Below are positions 47,547-63,991 of a stretch of DNA of 64,000 bases, piece by piece. This DNA is from Hericium rajendrae (taxonomy: Eukaryota > Basidiomycota > Agaricomycetes > Russulales > Hericiaceae). Where the stretch lies: assembly GCA_033439255.1 (NCBI GenBank), contig CM065883.1, positions 1,178,001 to 1,242,000 on the forward strand, in the 5' to 3' direction. Every line of letters starts with the position of its first letter. Position 1 is the stretch's first letter. Below the pieces are notes generated by a model. That model made no database searches. It saw only the letters and a program-made list of their open reading frames with translations, and had not been told where the DNA came from. The position numbers and the translations under genes are program-made.

Positions 47547-49807
47547 TCATGGCGGCCCGTGGGCCGCTACATGTTGCTGGAAGTTTACGCCAGCCCATGT
47601 GTTCTTAACTAGGGTCGTTAGTTTCGCCTTACGTTTGATTTTGTGTGCTATTATGCGGTCTGTGGTTCTTCGACTCAAGATGGCATTTGTCCAACAAGTG
47701 GTGATTTCTGCGACGGTGTGTTTTCTGCCGTCCACTACCCGTTCACATCGTATGATCCATATAAGGTATGCTGATTCTGAGACAAGGATTCTCAGGAGCC
47801 GTGATGGGCCTGCTGCGACTTGGTCACTCGTTGACGGGTGAGGTCGGTCCCGGGACAGCTTGCGTCGGGTTACGGTGAGTTTCCCGCTGGATAACACAGC
47901 ACCGAGGCTGATGTCTGGCCAGGTGTGGTCAGCGTGCGGCCAAAGGGTCTTTGCAAGGCCCCAAATCGTCGTCACAGTCGGGTCGGAGCATTCGGAGGTG
48001 AGGATGTGGGTAAACGACTCCGTTTCACCGCATGCGGAGCACGGTGCCCAGTGGGCATAGTTCGGTATGTTCTCCCAGTATGCTCCTACTTTATAAGCAT
48101 TGTGCAGTAGTTTATATATGAATTGGCGCGGTTTGTGTCGCAGGTCTTTGCTTAGGCAGCTGTACCAGATGGTAGCGTTGGTTTCGCTGTGGCCAGTGTA
48201 TTCTTCGAGCGCAGCACGTGCGATGTCCAGGCGGAGGACCGCCTGGCGGCGGGGAGGCATCGCCTTGCTTTCCTGGGCGCCGTGGTAAGCGACAGACTGC
48301 GTTATGGTCGAGATTTTCGCACCGTCGATGATGAAGGGTATGGGGATGGAGAGGTCTAAGTCATCTTCGACGTCTTTCGCTGCGCCTTCTTTGGCCCTCT
48401 CATCAGCCTCGTCATTGCCTAGTTCACCGTTATGGCCTTTTACCCACTGGAACCAGGTGGGCGCTGATCGGTATCATAGCAGGGAGGCGGCTTTGCGGAA
48501 GAAGGTGCTGTTCTGAACACCAATCCAGCCGTTGTCTTCCCAGTGTCGTAGGTGTTTGGTGAGGCCTTCAATCACATATCGTGAGTCAGTTTTAATGGTT
48601 AGGGGGACACAATTTTCTATTAGTTCCAGTGTTACTATGAGGGCAACAAGTTCACCCACTTGGTTGGATTGATGTGGGCCTGGGACGCGGACTGAGGCAT
48701 TGCGCGGATGGTTGTGGCCCATCCAAACACCGCTGCCGCACCTAGCGTTTGCTCGGCCATTGTTGAGACACGATCCATCGGTATACACCGTGATGGTCTC
48801 ATGGGGTAGGTCGCGGCCTCTCGCGACGTGGGTGAGTCGTGTTGCGGGTTCGGTGGACTTGTTTGCCGGATCCGTGAAGATGCGGAAGCATTCGGCAAGG
48901 TCAGTTTTGCAGGTAACTGAGGGGTCAAAGAGGATTTTACCGTTGGTGGCTTGGGCCCGTTGATTGGCCACCTTCCGTCTGTGCGTCAGGGTGAGTCCAT
49001 CAGTTCGTGGTTCGTTATTTGGATTAAGCTTGGGGTTGATATTGTTGAGTAGCTGCTTTGCTTCTTCCGCACATTTGTGCGGGTTGTCGCAACCGAGGGC
49101 TCTATCGGCCTTGCAGGCGCGACATGCACAGTTTCTGCGTGTTGCGTGGCGGCGGTTGTCAACGAGGTGGTCTAGGCGTCGGGCGACACTCATAAGGTCA
49201 GCCACAGTGATGGCCTCGTGCGTGGTCTGCAGGCAGGTCACAGCTTGCGTTGTTCTCTTCCGAGGGGCGCCTATGTGGTACCAGGCAGGGAGTTGGGTTT
49301 TGAGGTTGTGCGTAAGTTTGACGGTGGCGAAGTCCGCGTGGTACTTTTTCGCAGTTTTGAGCATGCTTATGATGTCTCGTGATAGGGTTTGGGCGCGGTG
49401 TCCCTGCAGAGGCGGCTTCCAGGTCTGGAGGAAGCTGTTCATTTTAATAGTGTCATCAACTGATCGGGGTGCCACTTTATTTATCAGGATGTCTGTGATG
49501 AATGCCCAGGCTGGGCGGGTCGGGCTTAGGTCGAGATAGGATTTCAGCCAGGTTAGTTCTATTGCTTCGTTCCTAGTTTTGATGTCAAGCAGGTTTATGC
49601 CGCCTTGGCGGTGCAGTTTGTAGAGGTGTTTTAGGGCGATAGGTGGCGAGGCTTTCCCATCCCAGAGGAAGTCACGCGTTATTTTTATGAGGGAGCTCTC
49701 AATTCGCTTTGGCATGCCTTGGACTTTGGCCCCGTATTGGGTCATCGCACCTACGGTCATTTGGATGATGAGGCGCTTCGCGTTAAGGGATGGGCGGGAG
49801 TGTTGCC
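47315..49807 (-). mobile_element. LINE (non-LTR retrotransposon), 3' part, RNase H half
   Basis: 3' portion of a LINE whose RT lies at 62,711-64,000; a KDZ transposon separates the halves. It resumes SRPSLNAKRLIIQMTVGAMT directly where the other half stops at LAHWQH. RNase H presence and layout suggest a Tad1-like clade, tentatively. The left boundary near 47,315 is an estimate based on the T tract. Confidence 0.8.
47547..49807 (-). pseudogene. LINE ORF2, C-terminal half: thumb, RNase H and zinc-knuckle region
   Basis: Seen: SRPSLNAKRLIIQMTVGAMT and QYGAKVQGMPKRIESSLIKI (RT thumb region), a Cys-rich CACRACKADRALGC motif, RNase H with ITVYTDGSCLNNGRANARCG (first Asp), HQSNQVGELVALIVTLELIE (Glu) and TIKTDSRYVIEGLTKHLRHW (second Asp), then ADERAKEGAAK and a zf-RVT-type block YAHWAPCSACGETESFTHIL. 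The reading frame is open over 2.2 kb except for one in-frame TGA at 48,474-48,476, in the position where Trp is expected (LL-W-YRSAPTWFQWVKGHN). One point change in an otherwise open frame means the LINE is young, and it is also physically split by the KDZ insertion. Confidence 0.82.
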
Positions 49808-49833
49808 CAGGGACGTCAGCTGGTTTTCTTGAT

Positions 49834-50227
49834 CCATCCCACAAGTTGTAAGGGGTCATGGATCGATCTGACCCATGAGTTGTAGGGGGGTTATAGAGGG
49901 CATAGAAATGGAATCCGATACCTTATACATGTAGATACTACTACCATCTGATAGGAATCCAATCCAATCCAATCCGAGTTTGTGCAGAAAAATATCAGGC
50001 ATATGAGGTTAGGACAACCATCAGATTAATCCATTCAAATCCGATGTAATTTGAGTCAATCCTAACTACATACTTAGCATATCGGTTTCAATCCAATCCA
50101 ATCCCATCCTTCCCTCAAATCTCAATCCCATGCTCAAATCTCAATCCCATGCTCAAATACATAAACCATAAACAATCCATCTGATCCCATCCATGTAGCA
50201 ATCCGATGGCATGTAATCTTATCCATC
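49834..50227 (+). repeat. Left terminal inverted repeat of the KDZ element
   Basis: Matches the reverse complement of 62,312-62,685 with about five mismatches. It starts CCATCCCACAAGTTGTAAGG, contains TGGATCGATCTGACCCATGA and arrays of AATCC/AATCCC words, and ends GTAATCTTATCCAT. It has a 19-bp tandem duplication (CTCAAATCTCAATCCCATG) absent from the right copy. Confidence 0.93.
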
Positions 50228-50570
50228 ACTCATCTATCTACTGGTGTCGAAATCCTATCCGATCTCATCCATCTAGATCTAGGGATAATCAGTAATCAAA
50301 TCTGTCATAATCCTAGCAGATATATAGGCAATTTAAGTAATACAAACCGATGAATAATCTCACTATCCAATCGGATAATGACTCCCGGCATTTGCATCGA
50401 CATACACATATGCACATATGGAACATACTACATGGCAGGAAGGCACAGTGATATACTCCTTGAGCCGTCATCGCTCTGTATCACGAACTTTACAAGCTAT
50501 CAAGCCCTTTTCGCATTCCTAGGAAGAGCATTTGTCAGACACAACTCAATGTCATTGGCTAAAGTACCAC

Positions 50571-52862
50571 TTACCGTGTTGACCGGCGAGGAGTAGAGAC
50601 CTTTCCACTTTTCGTGCCCTTCTTCTCTGCAGCACCCGTTCGAGGTTGTTTCGAGGTTGTCATTCTGCTAACGAAGCATGTCAATCATCATAGGTCCGAA
50701 AATCTGCGAAAGAGGATACATACGTGTTTGAAGTCTTCGTCGATAATCGTGTCCTCTTTGCAGGTGGTGCGGGTTCAATATCCTGGACATCTTTCCCCTT
50801 ACGCTTTGCAGCCCTTGTACTTGTCGAAGGCCCACTGGGTGATGCGGCAGCTGCTTTAGCTTGACGCCTGGTAGAGGTGCTGACATCCTTGCTGGGGCGA
50901 GTGGCAGTCTTCACGGTCTTCGGGCGTTGAACGCTAGGTTGATGGATGTGGTCGCTCCCTTCGTCGTCTTCCTCTTCCTCTTCGTCACCGTCGGCAGCGT
51001 CATCTTCCTCCCCACTGCCCTGGTCACCCTGTACTTCATCGTCACCCCCTTCGCTGTCCTTGTTCTCTGCCCCCTCATCCTCGCCTTCCCCCCGCTCATC
51101 CGTGATCAGGTCCTCGGTCTGATTGCGTGAGGAGTCTAGCAAACCATCCACTTCTTCCAACTCTTCCGACTGGTTGTCGGTCGTAGTCCCTGCGATCTCT
51201 TCACTTGCAGACCATCCACATCGGGCACGAGGTCCACGTCGCACCGTAGGTGGCGAGGAAGCTGCCGGTGTCGTCCCAGTCTTGCCAAGAGGCAGAGGCT
51301 CCTGCGTTGTAGGTTGAACACGTGACTGAGCAGTCACTGGTGGCAGGGAGCATGCTGATGCATTGACAGGGCAAGGGCGTGGTGGTGAGACGTTGCGTGG
51401 TGGTGAGCTTCCCATATCATGCCTATCACCCCCACCCAGGCTGAGCAGCTGACGACCCTCGTTCTCAATAAGGAACGCGATAGGAAATGGCTCGTCAGTG
51501 GGGGCACCTTGGACAAGGTCAGCCAACTCAAATACGTCGCGCGGAATCATTTCAGAGGGCTGGATATTCTTGAAACGACAAAAGATCGCTGTATTTGCTA
51601 GAAAGGCCGCCCGGTGGTTGTTGATGAGTGCCCAAGGCACGTTCTTGGACACGGATGGGATTCTGCAACGTGCTGTGAGAAGTATCAGAATCTATAGACA
51701 ACCCTCATGATGAAAAAACGTACCCCATAACCCTATAAGCACCTCCTCCATGACCTTAGCTAGATCCTTAGAAGTGATTGTGTCCATGTCTAACACAGGA
51801 AGGATAGGACGGCCACTCTCATCGAATTGAACCGTGTGCAACGACACAGCTTCTTGATCTTCAACATGGTGGACTAGCGACACTGTGAACATAATGCCTG
51901 GAACATGACCGATGTATGTACCTGGAAGGACCTCCTCCGCCCATTCTTTGAACACTTTTCGAAATCCATTCTTGTAATTGTCGATCTTGTCCACCCCAAA
52001 AGCGGTCGGGCCGTCGTGGACCGAGGTACTGCTGAACGTATTCATCGGAGTTGCACACTTGAAACGAACTGAGCACACGTACTGGAAAGTTTTCACCCTT
52101 CCGTCGGCATTCCTATACGCGCCCTGAACGAAGAAAGCTACGTCGCCGTGTTGGTTCCAATCGTAACCGCCCAACGAGGCGAGCGCGGTTGCGACAGCTG
52201 TAAGGATGTCATCTTGGTTGCTATCACACGAAGAAAACTGCTAATCAGTGTAATAACAAAGAATGAATATGCTACTTACTCATAGATATGTTTGACCGGC
52301 GGAGGGTTGTTGTGCTCCTCGTTCTTTACTGCGGCCTTTGCATGCCATTCTTCTTTTTCCGCAGCTGTAAGTGCATCCCATTGCTCCTTGCTCACTTGCC
52401 TCCATAACTTCAGGTTGTCATGTTCTCCAGTCGCAAGGCGCACGTTCTGCATTTCCTCGCGGATGTGGACGGCTTCTGCAATGCGAAAAAGGAACTTGCC
52501 ATTCGTGGCTTTCGGTTTCTTCAGGGCCTTCATTGCGATCGGCTTGGTTTTGCCAGCTTTTGAGGCTTGATTGTAGAACCAGCGTTTGAGTTTCTGTGCG
52601 ATATAGTGTCACGCCATATCAACATAGATACAACTGAAACGTGTACCTCCAGGACTTCTGTACAGCTTGAGTTCGCCATGAACTTCGTCTGAAACTGGTC
52701 CAGGACGTTAGCTTGCACCCATTGAGACTTGGCGCCCTTCGCAAGTTCGCCATCTTGCAACGCAAGAAAATCGGGGAGGTACTTCTGTAGCCAGGCCTTA
52801 TGCTCCGCGGTAAGGGTCTCAGCCTTGACTACACTGCTTTCGTCGACGCTGGTTGAAACCAT
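50571..52862 (-). CDS. KDZ cargo gene A: nuclear-type protein with HMG-like segment and acidic tail
   Basis: Function not recognised. Seen: a start at 52,862 (MVSTSVDESSVVKAETLTAE), HKAWLQKYLPDFLAL and SQWVQANVLDQFQTKFM, a basic exon (KLKRWFYNQASKAGKTKPIA), then NLKLWRQVSKEQWDALTAAE into KEEWHAKAAVKNEEHN, which resembles an HMG-box or HMG-like helix pair, a folded central region (GGYDWNQHGDVAFFVQGAYR, VMEEVLIGLWG), MIPRDVFELADLVQGAPTDE, a long Asp/Glu-rich low-complexity stretch and basic C-terminal segments (RAAKRKGKDVQD, then MTTSKQPRTGAAEKKGTKSG). Five or so introns. The HMG-like part and the acidic/basic tails suggest a chromatin or DNA-binding role in the transposon; that is inference. 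Confidence 0.68.
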
Positions 52863-53012
52863 GGCGAGATAGGATTGGCTGAGGGACTTATGGGGGTGTG
52901 GGAGGGCGGAAGAGAAGCGGACACAGTACCACCGTCCGATCTTTATATCTAAAACCATCGGGTTATTGTTCGCAGTCAATGCCCAAATCGATTGGAAATA
53001 CCATCGCTTTCT

Positions 53013-53315
53013 ATTCAATAAGTTTGCGTCAGTGGCACTGTCAATGCGTCCATGAGGCGGGTGGCGCTGTGGACTACTATCTTGCAGATAATTCAGTCTA
53101 CACGAGGCAAGACAACAGTCACGCACCTTTGTCTGTTCATCGTGAATGCTGATCCGTTCAATAAGGTATCTGTCAGTGACGCTAACGGTTATCGGTTCAC
53201 ACACGAGGCGGCGTAGCGCTGTGGACAGTCTGATAGATAAGTATCAGTCCACACGAGGCAGAACAATGACCGCGCACCTTTGTCCGAAGATCCGTTCGTC
53301 GTGAACGTCAATCCG
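53013..53315. repeat. Two degenerate tandem repeats of about 150 bp upstream of gene A
   Basis: Copy 1 (53,013-53,156) and copy 2 (53,157-53,315) share TTCAATAAG, GTCAGTG, GAGGCG, GCGCTGTGGAC, TACACGAGGCA-like words, GCGCACCTTTGTC and TCGTGAAnG in the same order. The array lies in the promoter side of gene A inside the KDZ element. Confidence 0.65.
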
Positions 53316-53588
53316 TCCATGGTGCGCTTCAGTGGATCCGAGATAACAATGGCTAGGAACGCTGATGGGTGAAACCCGTTCCAATCTCCGAGACCCAATC
53401 CTCAATCCCAATCAATCCATGGATGTCTTGAGGTTGCACGGGACAAAGGGTATGATACATCTGCAAATCTGCCAGACATAACACATTCAGTTTGAGTAAG
53501 CCACTCTGGGGGGAGATGCACCGATCATCATGTAATGTAAAGACTTTTCAAACATGCACAGATGTAAACGAAACAATACAGGATTTTA

Positions 53589-54880
53589 CTAATGACGCAA
53601 TACTCTATCCAACGGAGACGATAGTAAAGGTGGGGACGACGATCTGAAATCGGGCAGGGTGCGCGAACCGCGTGCACCCAGATCCCGGGGCAATCCTTCA
53701 TCCAGTACATGCTGTGTGTGCTCTGCCCAATCAATCATGGTCTTGACACCGCGGGCGCGCAAGAGCACTAAAGCGCCATCACGCACCGACAGAGGTGTAT
53801 CCCAGCGCAGGGAAAGCCACTGATGCTTGGTTTCCGCATAGCGTTCCACCGGTCCGTCTAGGCCAATCCGCCCCACAGCCATCTTGTGATCATCCAAAAC
53901 AAGACATTTCCCCCGTCGGGCAGAGACGGCGACATATGAGGGGGGATGGAGATCCTAAGGATGGGTCAGTGACATAGACAGAATGAGATAATGTGGTAAA
54001 CGAACGGAATACCATGCCATGATGGTCACGACGACGTTGTTGTCGAGATCGTTCGGGGCGTCGACAACATGACTGGACCCACTCTCCATGTCGCGAGGGG
54101 CCGTAACTCTTGACTTGTTTGACCGGGTTCCCTCAGCGCGAGAAACCTCATCTTCGTTATCAGAACCAGGAATCGAGTTGTCCTCCAGCGTAGCATGACC
54201 AGAATGGCATCTTTGTGCTAGCTTTGCACGCGTAGCAGACGGCGTATCGCAGAATTCAATGTCAGAGTCACTTTCAATGTCCTGCGTGGATGACGAAGGC
54301 CCAGTAGCCATTGAGCGTGCGTTTCCGGGAGTAGCAGCTCTCTCCAGGGAGGGTTGAATCTGATTCCGCGCCTTGGGCTCTAGCTCGGCTCTGATGAGCC
54401 ACCATGACGCGAGTGGTTCACTCTGGAGAATGAGATCTGGTGATAGACGAGGCGACAGCCATTGAAAGCATCGTCGTTCGCCACTACCTTCGACGGGTAT
54501 GCACTGCGAAAAAGTAAGCAAAGGCGAGAAAAGAGCTGGGCTGGACTTACAATTTGGTACCAACGTCCCGCATCCATAATATCTCCTCCTCCCACCGACA
54601 TGTAAGGGCCAGTGATTCTGTAGCCCGCATGGGTGTGTCTAGTTCTATCTACTGGAGGCCGCTTGGGAGCCAATTGCTCGAGGCCAGCACGAATTCGAAG
54701 CACATTCTGTTTCCGCTTCTCGGTCTTGGTGCCTATCAAGGTCGAATCCGCGTCGGTTTTGGGAGTCCTTGGGCCCTTGAGACGCGCCGCTTTGCGTGCA
54801 CTTGCCGAGGGCGTACGCGCATAAGGGGTCGATGGAGGAGCAAGAGAAGACTTAGTATGCGTAGAGGGAGTCCTGGGCAT
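53589..54880 (-). CDS. KDZ cargo gene B: Ser/Thr/Pro-rich basic N-terminus, unknown function
   Basis: Function not recognised. Seen: a start at 54,880 (MPRTPSTHTKSSLAPPSTPY), a basic region (SASARKAARLKGPRTPKTDA, then TKTEKRKQNVLRIRAGLEQL), RITGPYMSVGGGDIMDAGRW, an intron, CFQWLSPRLSPDLILQSEPL and ASWWLIRAELEPKARNQIQP, an acidic Ser-rich linker (DIESDSDIEFCDTPSATRAK), then NDLDNNVVVTIMAWYS, an intron, and the C-terminal block DDHKMAVGRIGLDGPVERY, WDTPLSVRDGALVLLRARGV and MIDWAEHTQHVLDEGLPRD. All three exons join in frame. Same strand as genes A and C; spacing to A is about 730 bp. Position inside the transposon suggests cargo or accessory function. Confidence 0.62.
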
Positions 54881-55142
54881 ATCGGTGCAACAGATTTCGT
54901 TCCAAGCTCATTCAGCGTTTATATAACTGTGATTCTCGTGTAGATCATCTGAGGTGGCGTGCAGTCAGTGAAACTTATTGTCCTGTGGGGCTGAAATGAC
55001 TTAGCTTTGACTTAGCTTGTGCCCACCGGATAGAAAGAACATGCCACACGAACAAGGGATTATCATGACAAATACAGATTAAGACGGCAATGACGACAGG
55101 GTCCAAGCAAATGCGACGAAAAGTAACAAGGATAATAATGGG
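54881..55142. other. Spacer between cargo genes B and C
   Basis: About 260 bp; holds the gene B promoter and gene C 3' end. Nothing else seen. Confidence 0.4.
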
Positions 55143-57204
55143 TTACTTGGAACCAGAGCGATGACGGAGACAGCGAATCCCTTGCGTAGGAGGTGCAGGA
55201 AGTAAAGGTGGAGGGAGATAACCTAGATTCTTAATGAAACTTTGGATGTAGAACGTCAGTAACTGTCGCTCCACGCTCAAGAACGTCTTCTCGTCCAGAT
55301 TTTCCAAGCGCATAATCCGCATATAAATCACCCTCTGCCATTTCTCCAGATCAAATCCAGGCCAATACTGCAAGAAACCCCGCATTGCCCCAACCCACTT
55401 TCTGCGCCTGTCCCAATCGAGTTCATACAGAGCCTTGCTACAGTCATCTGTCCATGCAAGGAAAATCTTGACAGAGGATGTCACGGCACTATGGTCCGCA
55501 GATGACAGATTGACATATTTGGTGTGGATTAACTCGAGATCTGCTTTGATGGTCTGGTGGACAAGATGATACAACAATGCGTAGCGGATGTCAGGGTCAT
55601 TTGCGGCCTCATTGTCCATGGCGCAGCCACAATCCAAGGTCGAGATCGCTAGATTGGGATCTGCAAGGACAGCCTGGTTATTGGGTCCGAAGATGGTGCT
55701 GCCGCCGTATACCCAAAAATGTTCATCGTCATACTGAGGGTCTACAGCCGGATCGAACTTGTCACCAAGAACAGGCCATTGTAACTTCCAGTACGCGTGG
55801 CCGAGAACACGTTTCCAGTCGCGCGTGTCGAGCCCAGGAGTGCCACAAACAGAGAATTTGTCAAGGGCATGCCGTAGAAGGAGAGCGTGACGAAAAAATG
55901 TGGTTTGATTGTCGGGGGAGACACCCCAAAAGAGATGGAAGGGAGGGACCTTGAAGAGACGTGAGGTGCCCGCATCTGCGATAGTGGTAGGATCCACCAT
56001 ATACATCGCATTGCGATAGATCTCGACCGGACGACGCATCCATGAGGGCGGGTCAGATGTGTTGTACCAGCGCCGCCATTCGTTATGTTTGATGTCCGGC
56101 TTAGGATGTCGTGACTGCGCTGAAGACATCAATAAGCAACAGAAAGCGTCAAGACTTGTAAAAACATACCGATGGACATTCGCTCTCGCTTGTTGAGAAC
56201 TCCCTTGTATTCATCCGTTGGGTTGAATTGGTCATCACGAGGAGCACATCCCCTCGCTGCAGACTCAAAATTCCGTGCGTCCTTCACGAGGGGAGGGTAC
56301 CACCAATGAGGTCCATTATGCTTGAGCGTTGCTTCAGGCCATGGAGCCAACTTGCATCGAACGTCGCGTGGAGCCATTTGGACTATTCTCGCCGAGTCTA
56401 GTATCCATTCATCGGCCTTGAGAATGATATAAGCGGATACACCCAGCTTGGCCAAACCAAGGTACACTACAAGGTCTGGTGCATAAACACCTCTGGTTTT
56501 ACCGCGGCGCTCCCGAACAGTGAGACTCTCCATCCGTATAGATTCCGGCACTTGGCAGTCGGACCACCACTCCTCGAAGGCAACAAGCTCCAGAAGAGCG
56601 CGCTGCAGGTGACGGAAAACCACAACAAATTCGCGCCAGGCTCGGACACCGTTCTTGAGCATCTCGTAGCAATCTAGAGCTCGCGAGCATGCATTGTGGG
56701 GCAGCACGATGTGTTCCATCCCTGCTGTAGCCTGGACGATGGGAAAGATCCGCCTCATCATTTCGCTGGCCCATTCCCATTCTTGACGAAAGATAGCGAG
56801 GACGGAGGATTCGGCAACGTGTTTTTGACAATCTTCAGGGTGTGAGATCCACAGCTCTTTAGAAACGGCCCGACCCAGAACTGCATGACGTTCGACTGAA
56901 TTAAGAAATACGACAGGGATATAGGCTAGGTAGGGGGCCGACACATCGAACACTTGAGGTAGGCGCGTCCACTCATATCCTCCCCATAACCCATCTAGCT
57001 GAAGTTGAGGTGTGGCGGACGTGTCCAAGGGCACAGGGATCATACGTGTATTTGCAGCGGCAATAACTTCATTGGATGATTGCAGGGGTGTCCAGGACGA
57101 GTACAGAAAGGAAAAGACCTACGAAAACAAAGTTGTATTATATGTTATATCCATGCTACCAAATGGAATAGGGAACGCACCTTAGCAGGACGAGAAGAGG
57201 CCAT
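55143..57204 (-). CDS. KDZ cargo gene C: about 630-residue protein of unknown function
   Basis: Function not recognised. Seen: a start at 57,204 (MASSRPAK), a 75-bp intron, then VFSFLYSSWTPLQSSNEVIA, LWGGYEWTRLPQVFDVSAPY, LAIFRQEWEWASEMMRRIFP, RALLELVAFEEWWSDCQVPE, SIRMESLTVRERRGKTRGVY, APDLVVYLGLAKLGVSAYII, DVRCKLAPWPEATLKHNGPH, an intron near 56,150, then KHNEWRRWYNTSDPPSWMRR, HLFWGVSPDNQTTFFRHALL, DEHFWVYGGSTIFGPNNQAV and a helical C-terminus (EKWQRVIYMRIMRLENLDEK). The two large exons are open without breaks over 1.9 kb, so selection probably still holds or the copy is new. No HxD dioxygenase motif, methylase motif or protease triad is recognised. It is Trp-rich. Confidence 0.7.
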
Positions 57205-57222
57205 TGTCCAGGTGGAAATGAC

Positions 57223-58165
57223 AGAGGTACGGAAACCAAAGGGGTAACGAAACGAGTATGTAAAAAAGGTGCGTCCACCCCTACACAGCGTACAGCAAGT
57301 CGTGCTCACGAATACCGCGGAGGGTTGGAGCGACAGGTCTGCTATACGCCAGGGCTTCAACATGAAAGAAAAAAAAAGCCGAGGCCAAGATATTAGGCCA
57401 GGAGAGTGGGGTTGTGCCAATCAGCAGATCCTTGCGGCGGACAAATGTTGCCTGACCGCAAGGGAGTCCACTGAAATGGCAAAGAGTCGGGTCCGGGGAA
57501 GGAATGGGAACAAAACACGACGTGAGTCTGAAAAAGAAGTCAAAGGGAAATGGAGAGAGTGAGATAAATATGCTTACCGGTACTGTACCTTGAGAGAGAC
57601 TCGCAGCTCTCGCTCGAGTATGCTGGTTGCCACGGAGGCAGAGTTGGTGTGGTTTGGTTGGGAGGCGAAGGCGTGAGAATAGTGACATAAGCAACTAGCA
57701 AGCCACTATCCGGGCAGTTGCGGGACTGTCAGTTCTGTCAGTGCGTGTACGTGTCAACGACTTCATCAATTGCCAGGAGCTCGTGCGCAGACGATCGTTG
57801 TGCTCGATACAGGTGAGTATTGATTTTTTTTTTGCTTCTGACTGGCATATTAGGTACACTGTTTGCTCCCCACCCGCTCCCCGGACCCGACTCTTCACCA
57901 TTTCAGTGGAATCCCTTGCGGTCAGGCAACGTTTGTCCGCCGCAAGGATCTGCTGATTGGCACAACCCCACTCTCCCGGCCTAATATCTTGGCTTCGGCT
58001 TTTTTTTTCTTTTCATGTTGAAGCCCTGGCGTATAGCAGACCTGTCGCTCCAACCCTCCGCGGTATTCGTGAGCACGACTTGCTGTACGCCGTGTAGGGG
58101 TGGATGCACTTTTTTTACATACTCGTTTTGTTACCCCTTTGGTTTCATATTCCTTTTGCTTGACT
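57223..58165. repeat. Internal inverted repeat between cargo gene C and the transposase
   Basis: Left arm (about 57,223-57,500) and right arm (about 57,885-58,165) are reverse complements over roughly 280 bp, with a spacer of about 385 bp. Shared parts include GAGTCGGGTCCGG, CCTTGCGGCGGAC, CAATCAGCAGATCCTTGCGG, GGAGGGTTGGAGCGACAGGT and AGCAAGTCGTGCTCACGAAT. The arms flank the start regions of two divergent genes. A third partial copy follows at about 58,170-58,310. Confidence 0.85.
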
Positions 58166-58169
58166 ACAC

Positions 58170-58310
58170 TCCACCCGGATTCGACTCTACGTCATTTCAG
58201 TGGACTCCCTTGCGGTCAGGCAATGTCTGTCCGCCGCGAGGATCTGCTGATTGGCACAACCCCGTACTCCCAGCCTAATATCTTGGTCTCGGCTTTTTTG
58301 CTTCGTTGAA
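58170..58310 (+). repeat. Third partial copy of the internal repeat module
   Basis: Directly repeats the outer part of the right arm: it runs CATTTCAGTGG, CTTGCGGTCAGGCAATG, GGATCTGCTGATTGGCACAA and CCTAATATCTTGG in the same order as 57,900-58,010, with a dozen or so differences. It lies upstream of the transposase ATG. Confidence 0.75.
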
Positions 58311-58747
58311 GATCCTGCCGCCACTAGAGCACTCGCCCGAAAAGCCCAAGTGACTGGCGGTTGTATGAAGGTATGTCTCATCTCGATTTCGATTGTGCTG
58401 TACTAAATCATTGTTACTAAGTCCACAAGTCACCGAAAATGACCGAGATCTGCGGGTCCACATGCCGTAGCCACAACCGTCGTCGCGTCGCATCAAGTCA
58501 AGTCGCGTCAAATCAAGTCGCATCACCTCGTTGTGGCCACTCTCGCTGCGGTGACATAATGATGGTGCAATAGCTAGGTGGCGGACGCATTGACATACGG
58601 GTATTGTTGCGTTTTCCTCGCTTTTCCATCCCGCCAGGATCTCTATCTATTCCCATATTATAAAATGCCTGTACTGTGCTGTGTTGCAGCCCCTTCCCAT
58701 CCTATTGCAATATCTCACTTTCGAGCTGCTTTCCGCATTCTATCCCG

Positions 58748-61700
58748 ATGTCTAAACGACCCCGTGTGACTGGTCGCATTGATAGCGACTCGGATGAAGA
58801 CAACGAAATCGAGATTGGGCTGAACTTCAGTCGCAATCACGGCGCCCGAACGACCTACCATCAGGTCGTATCCCCCAGAAAGTGGAGAGTTATGAAGACA
58901 ACGCCTGCGCCAGCGATTCCGGCACCTGACTTCTTGGAGAGCTCGTCGAAAAAGGAGTCAAAGCGGCCGCAGGTACGTCCATCGCCATTCGTTCCGTCAT
59001 AAAAGCCTGACTCCATGGATCAGGGCACGAGCGTGTTGATGAAGGCGTTCATTGACAGCATGCCCCGCATTCAGGACACGATCATTGGTCTCGAATTTGA
59101 CCCGGCTGTGGAAGAGGACTGCCTCTGTCACCGGGACGCAGCTGCAGCAGTCTATCGATGCCTTGACTGTTGGCAGTGCCGGCCGTCTTGCGGACAATGC
59201 ATCAAAGCAAGTCACCGACATCATCCGTTCCACAGAATTCAGAAGTGGAATGGTCATTTTTTCGATCGGTCTTCGCTGAACGACGTAGGGTTTATCATTA
59301 GCCTAGGGCATCATGGCCAGCGCTGTCCGAACCGTGCCTTGAACTCTGTAGGCCATTCTATGGTGGTCGTAGATGTGGGGGGTATTCATCAGTCTGCAAT
59401 TGAGTTTTGTTGCTGCCGTGATGCGCCTTCAGAACCTTTTCAACTATTGCAGCACCGTCTGTTTCCTGCTACCATGGATCTACCTCAGACGGCCTTCACC
59501 TTCCATGTCCTGGACGATTTCCACCTCCACACGCTTGCTTCAAAGAAGTCGGTGTACGATCATTACGCTGTGTTGCAATGGCACACCGACAATGTATTCC
59601 CACAGAACGTTCCGGTAAGATACAACAATTAGAGATTGGCCTTTCTAGTTCCTGACCTGTTGTTAGGATCGTCGTCGGGAGTTTCAGCAGGTGGGGCGCG
59701 TTTGGCGCGCTCTTGCCATGATTCGCCGGGCAGGGCAAGCCCACGGGATGGATGATGTTTTGACATTTCGACGGCGCAGCTCGTACGCAGTTAGATGTCC
59801 TGCATGCATTGAGCCTGGTGTCAACGTGTCCTTGGACGAGTTAGAGAAGATCTCACCCGAAGATATGTTCGTATCTCATATTTGCATGTATGGACTGTGC
59901 TAATTTGTCTCTTGCGCAGGCATAGGTATACCCTATTTCTGTCCGCCGATGGTAACTTCAGGCTACAACGCAAGATCAAGGTCGACGATCCCGATGACGT
60001 GGAGTTGCTCAAAGGCAACGCATACTTCGTGGAGCGGAGCGGATATAAAGATTACCTGAAAAAAATGGGAATAGCAACCGAGGATGAAGTCAGTCTAATG
60101 ACCATGTTCCAAACTCGTAACACTGACATATGTACAGAGATCTACTTGTGCCCGGCTCAATGTTGTGCGATTACAAAACCTTCTCAAGTTCAAACATACA
60201 ACCGTGAGTGGGGTGGATGCCATCCAGTGCGCGCGGCATGGTTTGTTCTGCCCTCAGGGCATGGTTGACTTGCAGAAAGGTGAAAGGTATGAGGTCCGTG
60301 TCACTGAGATCAGATTCTGGATGCTAATATTCTCGCGCCGCAGATTCTGCAATACTGACTATGCACTTATGTCTGCGTTGACCGAGTCCACACACGTTCC
60401 CTATATCAAATTCAGCTACGACATATTTTGCCAGTACGAAGTAAAGTTCCAGAGTCGAGTGGAAACACATTTCCCCGAAATGAAGGACATCGCCGCTCGA
60501 ATCAAAGGGCTGGTGCCCAAGCTGCATATCATGGGACACATCGAAGACTGTCAGCTGCAATACTCATTCAATACCACACCCCATGTCGGCAGGACATTTG
60601 GCGAGACGATTGAAACAGCGTGGGCAGAAGGAAACCAGACTGCGGGAAGCACAAAAGAGATGAACGCAGGTCATCGTCATGATATTTTAGATGATTTTCA
60701 TGGCTATTGGAATTGGCAGAAGGTCATCTCGATGAGTGAGTCTTGACACCATAATAATGGATACATATTAAATAGAATTTATATGACAGCTCGCTTGCTT
60801 TTTAAACGTCATACAAATGCGGTTGCCATGTATCGTCGGGCAAGTAGTGCATTTGACGCACTGTGTGCACGACATGGACCAGATTTAATTGCTGATTGGT
60901 CCGCCATGGACTGCAAGCCGGTCGTCGTGAATGGAAAAGTAACAAGTGTTTATGTGTCCAAGGCGAAACACGGTGGGTCCATGTTACCCGTCAATGCGCA
61001 ATGAAGTGACCCTTATACCTGTTCAGGACCACCAACACAGTTCTCCAAACTTCAGGAACTACTTCAAGATGAGACTGTGCAGATGTTGAGCAAGCAGGGC
61101 ACTGCGGGATGGGTTTCTGTTATCAATGACGGGTTGCGTATGGAGGCAGAACAGTGAGTGTATCGGTCATGCGGGTATTTTCCTGTTTCTAATGCTTTGC
61201 AGATCTCGTCTTCAGACATTGGCATCTATCAAAGGACATACGCCTGGGGAACAGGAACGTTTGGAAGTTGGTCGTCTCAAATTTCGGAATGAGCTTGATA
61301 CATGGCGGTCACGTCAATTAATGTTATTTCCTGCTCTCCACTGCATGCTCGTTGTTGACGAAGACGACGAGCCCGAAAACATCAAGCTACTGCTGCCATC
61401 ATCATTCAACGAACCTATGAGGAAGGCCCAGGGCTTGGATGATGTGGTTGTGATAGAGCGCGGGCTGCGGATTGGTCAAGCCCATGACGCCCTTCGAGAT
61501 GTCCGGCATGCCATCAAGATGTTCAACTATAACCTGAAGTTCAAGAAAAGCAACATCTTCAATCAGGGGCCGACAACCCGAGCTCAGGCTTTTCTTCGTG
61601 ACCTGAAACGTGACCAAGTAAGCGCGGCAGATAAGTATCGTCGTGCTCGTGCGGCTTTGGTACGTTTGGGTATGGCCGAAGATGATCACGTACTGCAGCC

Positions 61701-62288
61701 TTTAAAGAACGAGGACCTTTGGATGAAGGACATTACTCAACCTCGACGGACAGGTAAGTGCAATGTCCATTATAAGTCACTTGTCCTGATCATATACCCA
61801 GGGGATGCGGGAAAGCAAGATCCTTGGTTTTGGACAGTGGTTGGTCCATCCGCACTGACTGAGGAGGAGCAAGCAGAGTGGAGTATGGAAAGTACGTATA
61901 ATTTTCTTTTGTTTCACTCTATATATTGACTTGAACAGGTGAACGTGTGAAGTGGTTCCATGACCGGGCAGATTGCCACCACTGGCGAGAAGAGATCGAC
62001 ATAACCGATCAGGAGTTTACCAACACTAAACGCTCCCATACGGCAATGAGCGTGGCCTGGAGTGCTTTGGCATCGAAGGCGAAGGAGCGTGGTGCAGCAG
62101 CATACACGCACAAGCACAGCTCAATGTATGGGGAATTGGCTAAAGATGCAGCTTTGTTCCATACGAGTGCTCTTGATAAGGCAAAAGAACTGAAGGTACG
62201 TGTACTGCTAGGATTACAATGGATTCGATGACCGATTCCTTATGCATAGGTGAATGAGACCGAAGAGGATTTCAATACTGGTGGATAG
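58748..62288 (+). CDS. KDZ transposase with N-terminal CxC2-type cysteine cluster
   Basis: Large transposase of the Kyakuja-Dileera-Zisupton class (RNase H-like fold). Seen: a start at 58,748 (MSKRPRVTGRIDSDSDED), then the cysteine cluster CLCHR, YRCLDCWQCRPSCGQCIKAS and HRHHPFHRIQKWNGHFFDR, GFIISLGHHGQRCP, LPQTAFTFHVLDDFHLHTLA, YAVRCPACIEPGVNV, HRYTLFLSADGNFRLQRKIK, GNAYFVERSGYKDYLKKMG, RSTCARLNVVRLQNLLKFKH, DAIQCARHGLFCPQGMVDLQ, KFSYDIFCQYEV (acidic residue of the core), KLHIMGHIEDCQLQYSFN, VGRTFGETIETAWAEGNQTA, STKEMNAGHRHDILDDFHGY and a long C-terminal part ending NETEEDFNTGG. About eleven introns; exons join in frame where checked, so it may be functional. Confidence 0.9.
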
Positions 62289-62311
62289 ATAAGACTTAAG
62301 GTGGATTGTGT

Positions 62312-62685
62312 ATGGATAAGATTACATGCCATCGGATTGCTACATGGATGGGATCGGATGGATTGTTTATGGTTTATGTATTTGAGCATGGGATTGAGAT
62401 TTGAGGGAAGGATGGGATTGGATTGGATTGAAACCGATATGCTAAGTATGTAGTTAGGATTGACTCAAATTACATCGGATTTGAATGGATTAATCTGATG
62501 GTTGTCCTAACCTCATATGCCTGATATTTTTCTGCACAAACTCGGATTGGATTGGATTGGATTCCTATCAGATGGTAGTAGTATCTACATGTATAAGGTA
62601 TCAGATTCCATTTCTATGCCCTCTATAACCCCCCTACAACTCATGGGTCAGATCGATCCATAGCCCCTTACAACTTATGGGATGG
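62312..62685 (-). repeat. Right terminal inverted repeat of the KDZ element
   Basis: Reverse complement of 49,834-50,227, about 98-99% identical apart from one 19-bp indel. It begins about 24 bp after the transposase stop, so the transposase terminator must lie in the repeat. Confidence 0.93.
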
Positions 62686-62710
62686 CTTAATCCTATGATA
62701 TGCAGCTGGT

Positions 62711-63991
62711 GTGTTGCCAGTGTGCAAGGCTTGTGCGTATCTTATCGAGGACGGGGCCCCACGGTTGCGCGTTATCCACGTTGTTACCGATCCAGCGTCC
62801 CAGGTATCTCGTGGGGTTGCCGTCCCATGCCATATTGATGTCAGCAGCTAGGGTATCGTGGTCGTCTGGGTGGATGCGTCGTGTTGCCAGGATGCGCTCC
62901 CGATGCGCCGGGGTGCCGATAGGTATGATTTCCGTTTTGTTAATGTTGAATTTGGCACCTGATGCAGCACACCATTTGTCGAGGATGTCTTTCAGGTCAT
63001 CGTAACGATCATATTCGCTCAGAAAGACGGCAGTGTCGTCAGCGAATAAGCTCACCAGTACTTTTTCGGCGATGCCAGGTATTTGGAAGCCGCGGAGTTT
63101 TGGTGAGGTGCGCAGCATGCAGGCGAGGGGTTCAATGGCAAGATCAAAGAGTAGACACGATAGTGGGTCACCCTGCCGCACACCTCGGGTGACGCGGTAG
63201 GGCTGGCTGAAGAAGCCATTGATAGCGACTTTCGTGTAGGCAGTGTCGTAGAGGGAGCGGACTGTACGGACAAACTCGTCAGGTAGGTTGTACCGCTTGA
63301 GGGTTCGCCACAGATAGTCGTGGTCGATTTTATCGTAGGCCTTTTCTTGATCGAGCGCGATGATGACTCCATTCTCGTCCATGGCTTCAGCAAAGGTGAT
63401 CATTGCTTGGGCGAGGCGCGTTTGGTCAAAAATGGACCGGCCGGGTACAAATCCGGCTTGGTTAGGGTGGATCAGTGGGTGGATGGTGCATGCCAGTTGC
63501 GTCGTGAGGGCTTTAGTGAACAGTTTGTAGTCTGTATTGAGGAGGGTAATCGGTCGGTAATTTGCTATGTCTGATTTATCTTTCTTCTTATAGATAGGAC
63601 ACATCCAGCCCATGCTGAAGTCGGTGCTGTTTGCAATGCCATGGAGCTGGATGTCGTTGAAGACTCGGGTTAGCGTTGGTATGATGTTGAAGGCTGGTGC
63701 GCCTGCTTTCGCGGCTTTCGCACTAATGTCCTGGAGTGTCTTCCAAAGTTCGTATGGGCATCCATCCACTCCTGTCGCAGTGCCGTTCTTTGCGGTACGG
63801 AGGGCTTGTTCCACATCAAGTTCAGTGATGAGTTGATCAAGGTGGGTGTGTGCGTTGTCAGGTAGTGTCTGACTATCAGGGATCGAGTTGAGGACCGCGT
63901 CGCTGTTTTGTAGCACTTCAGCAGGCGTCCGGGATTCGTCTCGGCCCTGGGCTTGCAGGGCATCATGGTACATCCCTGCGAGGGTTGCCAT
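62711..63991 (-). CDS. LINE reverse transcriptase domain, truncated by KDZ insertion
   Basis: Non-LTR reverse transcriptase that would copy the element's RNA at a nicked target. Seen: RTAKNGTATGVDGCPYELWK, CPIYKKKDKSDIANYRPITL (RT motif 1), HPNQAGFVPGRSIFDQTRLA, GVIIALDQEKAYDKIDHDYL (motif A Asp), YRVTRGVRQGDPLSCLLFDL (motif B), KVLVSLFADDTAVFLSEYDR (catalytic FADD box), KFNINKTEIIPIG and RYLGRWIGNNVD. The frame is open throughout and stops only because the KDZ end supplies TAG just beyond LAHWQH. No endonuclease domain is visible; it should lie outside the window. The coding sequence resumes at 49,807 with SRPSLNAKR. Confidence 0.9.

What the first reader, a model, noticed from the sequence alone, without database searches (positions are those of the whole stretch)
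49808..62710. A 12.9-kb KDZ transposon carrying three extra genes, apparently whole
The element has long inverted repeats (374 and 394 bp, about five mismatches plus a 19-bp indel), an 8-bp target duplication and an open KDZ transposase. It also carries three intron-bearing genes (A, B, C) with no function I can name. KDZ elements in mushrooms are best known for carrying TET/JBP dioxygenases; I find no such gene here. A transposase paired with a fixed set of unknown partners would be a distinct KDZ lineage, perhaps using the partners for DNA binding, packaging of ends or silencing escape. High repeat identity implies a recent jump.
Basis: partly seen in the sequence, partly recalled or inferred. 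Interest (0 to 1): 0.85.

Follow-up and report, generated by a model that had tools for sequence, protein, structure and literature searches.

The report
Four-gene KDZ transposon with unequal ends
A mushroom-type genome carries a family of jumping DNA elements that travel with the same three unexplained genes beside their transposase, which suggests that these genes are working parts of the jumping machinery and not stray cargo.

Summary
The element is 49808-62711 (12,904 bp). Its target duplication is 7 bp (TGTTGCC), not 8. The outermost 21 bp are not inverted copies: one end starts CAGGGACGTCAG, the other CACC...CATATCATAGG, followed by 398/379-bp subterminal inverted repeats. All four genes are open in my splice models: a 990-aa KDZ/CxC2 transposase, A (694 aa), B (649 aa), C (397 aa). 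Two more copies (98.4-98.5%) sit on another contig, one interrupted. Joined flanks match a paralogous unoccupied site with no net gap. A and C each hit 12 loci in this genome, 12 of 12 in the order B-C-A, 11 of 12 with a divergent KDZ gene. Nine sampled transposases of these loci form one clade (100/99), apart from sampled TET/JBP-linked and B'-linked KDZ genes. A, B and C show purifying selection between families. A distant B relative (~30%) lies just upstream of KDZ genes at 15 of 20 places. The distinct-lineage idea is supported within this one genome. Function is inferred: A is HMG-box-like below threshold; B and C match no known family. Also seen: a conserved second inverted repeat in the shared upstream region, interior flips relative to the ends, probable inversions, CpG decay of copies.

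The parts
49801..49807 (.). left copy of the 7-bp target duplication TGTTGCC
49808..62711 (.). whole element, 12,904 bp, 5'-CAGGGACG...GCTGGTG-3'
49808..49828 (+). L end outside the repeat; motif CAGGGACGTCAG(C/T)TGGT found at the left ends of 9 of 9 elements with both ends read (a tenth, lone left-type end on C9 lacks its outer bases)
49829..50226 (+). left subterminal inverted repeat (398 bp), with one extra 19-bp tandem unit
50500..52862 (-). gene A, 694 aa, 6 exons (52862-52647, 52593-52280, 52220-51724, 51672-50724, 50664-50575, 50518-50500); HMG-box-like stretch residues 97-166, acidic middle, basic tail
53589..54880 (-). gene C, 397 aa, 3 exons (54880-54551, 54503-54006, 53954-53589), no known domain
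55143..57204 (-). gene B, 649 aa, 3 exons (57204-57181, 57118-56170, 56119-55143), no known domain
57232..57499 (+). internal inverted repeat arm 1, next to the B start
57878..58146 (-). internal inverted repeat arm 2, on the transposase side, 96% to arm 1; a third partial copy at 58174-58299
58748..62288 (+). KDZ transposase, 990 aa, 12 exons; CxC2 zinc cluster residues 160-266, KDZ domain residues 342-568
62312..62690 (-). right subterminal inverted repeat (379 bp)
62691..62711 (-). R end outside the repeat; motif (reverse strand) CACC(AGCTG or TTATG)CATATCATAGG, 10 of 10 right ends read
62712..62718 (.). right copy of the 7-bp target duplication TGTTGCC

Best explanation
It is a self-contained cut-and-paste transposon of the KDZ superfamily, from a lineage in which the transposase and three further genes (B-C-A on one strand, transposase divergent) are inherited together as one four-gene unit. 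Shown: the ends, the duplication, further copies, an unoccupied related site, the linkage within this genome and the purifying selection. Inferred: the zinc-cluster transposase (a DDE enzyme, recalled) recognises two different ends, cuts out the 12.9-kb DNA and pastes it at a 7-bp staggered target. The partner proteins are part of that reaction or of its control. A, with its HMG-like stretch and highly charged tail, most likely bends DNA and helps bring together ends 13 kb apart. B, whose distant relative accompanies a second KDZ clade and which shares an inverted upstream module with the transposase, is most likely a co-expressed subunit or regulator of the transposase. C is a third, lineage-specific factor of unknown role.
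For: KDZ and CxC2 domains and open frames. Two other copies. 7-bp duplications on both sides of 5 of 9 elements with both ends read, and exchanged between the two C17 copies. Joined flanks match a related unoccupied site with no net gap. A 12 of 12 and C 12 of 12 loci in the order B-C-A, KDZ divergent at 11 of 12. Nine sampled ABC transposases one clade, 100/99. Window to C10: dN/dS 0.08-0.29 in segments of A, B and C, with high dS (1.1-2.8); window to C5: 0.17-0.27 in two C segments, synonymous change saturated in the other segments. C exon 3 open at 12 of 12 loci. Internal inverted repeat pair between B and KDZ at 11 of 12 loci. B' 2.8-3.7 kb upstream of KDZ on the same strand at 15 of 20 places.
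Against: No transcripts, no assay. A's HMG match is below Pfam's cut-off (14.2 against 22.4 bits, E 0.075). B and C match no family. Both structure predictions were poor (mean pLDDT 30.5 and 55.6) and the one fold search found nothing. One B-C-A locus (C5:1525-1530 kb) has no divergent transposase in the list used, and two B genes on C9 stand alone. Many relatives are decayed: stops in A or B frames and, in C10, a changed splice donor in gene C. Selection could act on something other than transposition, such as protection from silencing.
Confidence: 0.62

Rival explanations
1. A, B and C are an anti-silencing module: they take the place that TET/JBP holds in other KDZ elements and protect the element from cytosine methylation or heterochromatin, without a part in the cut-and-paste chemistry.
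For: TET lies 1.7-5.5 kb and B' 2.8-3.7 kb upstream of a KDZ gene on the same strand, at 36 of 46 and 15 of 20 places; sampled transposases of the two kinds (6 and 5 rows) fall in separate clades (which warns of long branches between them). In the 9 elements with both ends read, the only TET match inside (C14) lies 2 kb from another KDZ gene there. Private changes of the two C17 copies are mostly CpG transitions (84 of 110, no transversion), so these copies look methylated and silencing is a real pressure.
Against: No enzyme domain in A, B or C. The copies decay at CpG all the same, so any protection is incomplete. Three genes and an upstream module shared with the transposase fit a working complex equally well.
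Confidence: 0.22
2. A, B and C are passenger genes caught once by an ancestor and carried along for a benefit to the host fungus.
For: KDZ elements in fungi are said to carry accessory genes often (passage in PMC12477816, citing Iyer 2014, which is not held).
Against: No A or C match outside these 12 loci in this genome. A distant B occurs with a second KDZ clade. Same set, order and strand at B identities down to ~54-61%.
Confidence: 0.08
3. Ordinary decayed repeat: the open frames are remnants without selection.
For: Near copies differ at dN/dS 0.36-0.86 and both C17 copies have premature stops or an insertion; many relatives carry stops.
Against: Between families dN/dS is 0.08-0.29 where it could be estimated; most intron places and frames are kept; the window copy is open in all four genes.
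Confidence: 0.04

Closest known systems
TET+ Kyakuja of Agaricomycetes (Kojima 2025, PMC12730594; abstract, outline and passages seen)
   Same: KDZ-superfamily transposase, 7-bp target duplications, 5'-CA...TG-3' ends, outermost bases of the two ends not inverted copies, accessory gene on the element
   Different: no TET/JBP gene; three other genes instead; 379/398-bp subterminal inverted repeats; transposase not in the clade of the six sampled TET-linked KDZ genes of this genome
KDZ1-KDZ3 of Cryptococcus neoformans (PMC12810828; passages seen)
   Same: large KDZ element (9-11 kb there), long inverted repeats (139-241 bp there), zinc cluster beside the KDZ domain, mobility seen there
   Different: 8-bp (KDZ1) or 4-8-bp (KDZ2, KDZ3) duplications there against 7 here; CxC1 there, CxC2 here; no B-C-A set mentioned in the passages seen
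KDZ genes of Pleurotus ostreatus (PMC7641404; passages seen)
   Same: intact KDZ genes all preceded by a CxC2 cluster
   Different: no account of whole elements, ends or this gene set in the passages seen
giant KDZ of the brown alga Ectocarpus (PMC12477816; passages seen)
   Same: giant DNA transposons including KDZ, generally over 10 kb, many families carrying additional genes
   Different: not a fungus; partner genes not identified in the passages seen

Membership tests
KDZ superfamily | KDZ transposase domain (PF18758) above the curated cut-off | tested here: met
   191.5 bits, E 2.2e-56, cut-off 26.6
KDZ superfamily | cysteine cluster N-terminal of the KDZ domain | tested here: met
   CxC2 113 bits, cut-off 27
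Zisupton | 8-bp target duplication (PMC12730594 passage) | tested here: not met
   7 bp; 8 bp would need a G before the left 7-mer, present at 4 of 9 left ends
Kyakuja | 7-bp target duplication | tested here: met
   5 of 9 elements with both ends read match over 7 bp; the two C17 copies carry each other's; C2b's left matches C2a's right; C7 does not match
Kyakuja | 5'-CA...TG-3' ends | tested here: met
   CAGGG at the left of 9 of 9 elements with both ends read, GGTG at 10 of 10 right ends; a lone left-type fragment on C9 lacks its outer bases
Kyakuja | no terminal inverted repeats (as described for two Laccaria families) | tested here: inconclusive
   outermost 21 bp not inverted copies, but long subterminal inverted repeats follow
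Kyakuja | transposase within the Kyakuja branch of the published tree | not testable with these tools
   no named reference transposase was at hand; tree of own-genome fragments only
TET+ KDZ element | TET/JBP dioxygenase gene in the element | tested here: not met
   46 TET_JBP matches in the genome (38 over the cut-off), none within the window element; the one inside the bounds of an ABC element (C14) lies 2 kb from another KDZ gene there
HMG-box proteins (gene A) | HMG-box domain above the curated cut-off | tested here: not met
   HMG_box_2 14.2-14.6 bits against 22.4 for the window protein; HMG_box touched in 2 of 4 members scanned, best E 0.064; so 'HMG-like' only

The most novel reading that the evidence does not exclude
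A KDZ lineage whose transposition needs a multi-protein apparatus: a transposase plus three co-inherited partners acting on two different, end-specific sites. The interior can invert against the ends by recombination between the inverted repeats, and the old B family is a general KDZ partner that stands where TET/JBP stands in other KDZ clades of the same genome.
Probability: 0.35. Interest if true: 0.75.

Novelty: new variant of a known kind. Interest (0 to 1): 0.58.

Why it matters
Most eukaryotic cut-and-paste elements are thought to need one or two proteins (recalled). A KDZ lineage with three conserved partners gives concrete, testable candidates for accessory transposition or counter-silencing factors. 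One genome holds three KDZ groups with three different partner sets (TET, B', A+B+C), so the question why a transposon carries extra genes can be asked by direct comparison. B is a conserved family without any Pfam match that now has a genomic context.

Tried and rejected
Structure of B exon 2 (pLDDT 30.5) and of the A exon with the HMG-like stretch (pLDDT 55.6): too poor to use; a fold search with the second gave nothing at E up to 0.001. Solved-structure search by sequence: nothing for the N-terminal 223 columns of A; two chance-level cyclin-K rows (E 0.38) for B. IMG/VR scan with B: 32 pattern matches, none confirmed. A protein of the nested element with a WF.N motif as a relative of A: not supported (hhalign probability 1.5%). 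Left end of the C2a copy at C2:41000-41700: motif not found. An 8-bp duplication was my own first reading (note) and was dropped. Dating by inverted-repeat identity: rejected, see verdict.

Literature: six searches answered, one malformed. None of the listings or passages seen describes a KDZ element with this three-gene set; Iyer 2014, the paper most likely to, is not held, so absence from print is not claimed.
Full report
WHAT IS THERE. The element runs from 49808 to 62711. The inverted repeats are real (49829-50226 with 62312-62690; 98-99%), with a 19-bp tandem unit present once more in the left arm. The outermost 21 bp are not inverted copies of each other (7 of 21 positions alike). Reading the ends of other copies showed two end types kept through the family: L, CAGGGACGTCAG(C/T)TGGT, and R (reverse strand), CACC(TTATG or AGCTG)CATATCATAGGATTAA. 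Both ends were read in 9 elements, plus the right end of C2a and a lone left-type fragment on C9 that lacks the outer CAGGGACGT; the other matches among the 24 were not read. Because 10 of 10 right ends finish in GGTG, the duplication is 7 bp, TGTTGCC here. Of the 9 elements, 5 have the same 7-mer on both sides (window, C3, C4, C10, C14), the two C17 copies have each other's, C2b's left 7-mer equals the right one of its neighbour C2a, and C7 has no match. The base before the left 7-mer is G at 4 of 9, so an 8-bp reading fails at the other five.

MOBILITY. Two further copies lie on contig C17: C17:381804-394717, 98.46% over the whole length, and C17:321916-347312, 98.36% and 99.05% on the two sides of a 12,470-bp second KDZ element with 797-bp inverted repeats, which interrupts the transposase gene. 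The window insertion sits in an open frame with an RNase H domain (E 8.7e-18), probably of a non-LTR retroelement (inference). With the element and one duplication left out, 596 bases of the joined flanks match 596 bases at C4:2318420-2319015 (73%), and two more places span the junction (C7, 65%; C2, 63%), no net gap in any. These are related unoccupied sites, not alleles of this one.

GENES. My splice models give a 990-aa transposase (KDZ E 2.2e-56, CxC2 E 9.5e-33), A 694 aa, B 649 aa and C 397 aa, all open. Most splice sites recur at the same places in two relatives, C10 and C5; in C5 the B frame runs on through the place of the second intron, and in C10 the first donor of C is changed. A touches HMG-box models below cut-off and ends in a basic tail. 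In Pfam at E up to 10, B matches nothing and C one family at E 0.3.

THE PARTNERS ARE A FIXED SET. Searching the whole genome with one exon each: A 20 matches, exon by exon, at 12 loci; C 12 matches at 12 loci with exon 1 and 12 at the same loci with exon 3, 12 of 12 open; B 37 matches, 14 loci at 61% or more. The 12 A and C loci are the same, and 12 of 12 have B-C-A on one strand. 11 of 12 have a KDZ gene divergent from B at 3.2-20 kb (the C5:1525-1530 kb locus has none in the list); for C14 this is the gene at 1135141, read from the coordinates, as another KDZ gene lies nearer. The longer distances are presumably due to other insertions. Two B genes on C9 stand alone. Of the other 23 B rows I dropped three as second pieces; of the 20 left, 15 lie 2.8-3.7 kb upstream of a KDZ gene on the same strand and 5 do not. 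Of 46 TET_JBP matches, 38 over the cut-off, 36 lie 1.7-5.5 kb upstream of a KDZ gene on the same strand. The KDZ list used held 128 rows; the search reports 172 matches, of which second pieces of a locus were left out by hand and some were not listed by the tool.

SEPARATE CLADES. A tree of 39 KDZ core fragments (45 tried, 6 lost) gives one clade for the 9 ABC rows (100/99), one for 6 TET rows (100/100) and one for 5 B' rows (96/91); the partners of the other 19 rows were not studied, and the program warns of long branches between TET and B'. In this sample, partner set follows transposase lineage.

SELECTION AND DECAY. Window to C10: dN/dS 0.08-0.10 (B), 0.19-0.23 (C), 0.09-0.29 (A), at high dS (1.1-2.8). 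Window to C5: synonymous change is saturated in the B, A and transposase segments, and dN/dS is 0.17-0.27 in C. Between the window and the C17 copies dN/dS is 0.36-0.86, as expected of copies decaying after insertion. The uninterrupted C17 copy has premature stops in two genes; the other has one besides the insertion; a few small gaps were not examined. The window copy is open. Private changes of the two C17 copies are CpG transitions in 84 of 110 cases, with no transversion; of the 126 sites where the window alone differs 71 are CpG transitions, 48 other transitions and 7 transversions, but their direction is unknown. This is the mark expected of methylated cytosine.

THE SHARED UPSTREAM REGION. 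Between B and the transposase lies a second inverted repeat (57232-57499 with 57878-58146, 96%; a third part at 58174-58299). A genome search with the first arm and some flank gave 31 matches. An inverted pair lies between B and KDZ at 11 of the 12 B-C-A loci, down to 70% identity, and copies lie beside the lone B genes on C9. None is listed at the C5 locus that also lacks the transposase. The simplest reading is a duplicated regulatory module for both divergent genes (inference).

FLIPS AND INVERSIONS. In 4 of 9 elements the L end is next to gene A (window, two on C17, C4), in 5 next to the transposase (C3, C7, C10, C14, C2b). C4 groups with C14 and C3 in the tree, so at least two changes are needed: the interior has turned against the ends, or the ends have been exchanged. 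Recombination between the inverted repeats would do it. The swapped duplications of the two inverted C17 copies, 34 kb apart, are what an inversion between two inverted copies leaves behind; C2a/C2b show the same on the one side that could be read.

WHAT IT WORKS LIKE AND WHAT IT IS. By domain it is KDZ. By ends and duplication it fits the description of Kyakuja (7 bp, CA...TG, no terminal inverted repeats; PMC12730594, abstract and passages) better than Zisupton (8 bp). But it has long subterminal repeats, and its branch in the published tree could not be tested. That fungal KDZ elements carry accessory genes is known (PMC12477816 passage, citing Iyer 2014, not held). What I did not meet in the listings and passages seen is this three-gene set, its constancy, the shared internal repeat and the end-specific motifs.

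LIMITS. One genome; no relatives from other species; no transcripts; splice models by eye and comparison; functions of A, B and C are inference.

Noticed in passing
window 57232-58299; loci: Internal inverted repeat pair between the divergent B and transposase genes, found at 11 of 12 B-C-A loci; likely a shared regulatory module.
   Followed up: partly
L009-L011 (C17:321916-347312) and L012-L013 (C17:381804-394717): The two inverted C17 copies carry each other's 7-bp target duplications, as after an inversion of the ~34 kb between them; C2a/C2b show the same pattern on one side.
   Followed up: partly
L010-L011, C17, nested in the first copy: A different 12,470-bp KDZ element with 797-bp inverted repeats (98.5%), an apparent 8-bp duplication and other unknown genes, inserted in the transposase gene.
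   Followed up: partly
C3, C4, C7, C10, C14, C2, C17 and window elements: Interior orientation relative to the two end types differs between copies (4 of 9 against 5 of 9).
   Followed up: partly
window 49801-49807 and L077/L078 (C10:24604, 48279): The window and C10 insertions share the same 7-bp duplication TGTTGCC and the base on each side, in unlike flanks; possible target preference or coincidence.
   Followed up: no
G000: 36 TET/JBP-KDZ neighbour pairs and 15 B'-KDZ neighbour pairs in the same genome; the 6 and 5 transposases sampled fall in separate clades.
   Followed up: partly
C9:1813101, 1870530, 1945133: Two lone B genes (83-85%) and one lone end fragment on C9, without transposase, A or C in the lists.
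   Followed up: no
window 48477-49799 and 62719 onward: The insertion lies in a retroelement-like open frame with an RNase H domain, with diverged paralogues on C4, C7 and C2.
   Followed up: partly
L009-L013: Private substitutions of the two C17 copies are 84 of 110 CpG transitions with no transversions, suggesting cytosine methylation of these copies.
   Followed up: yes
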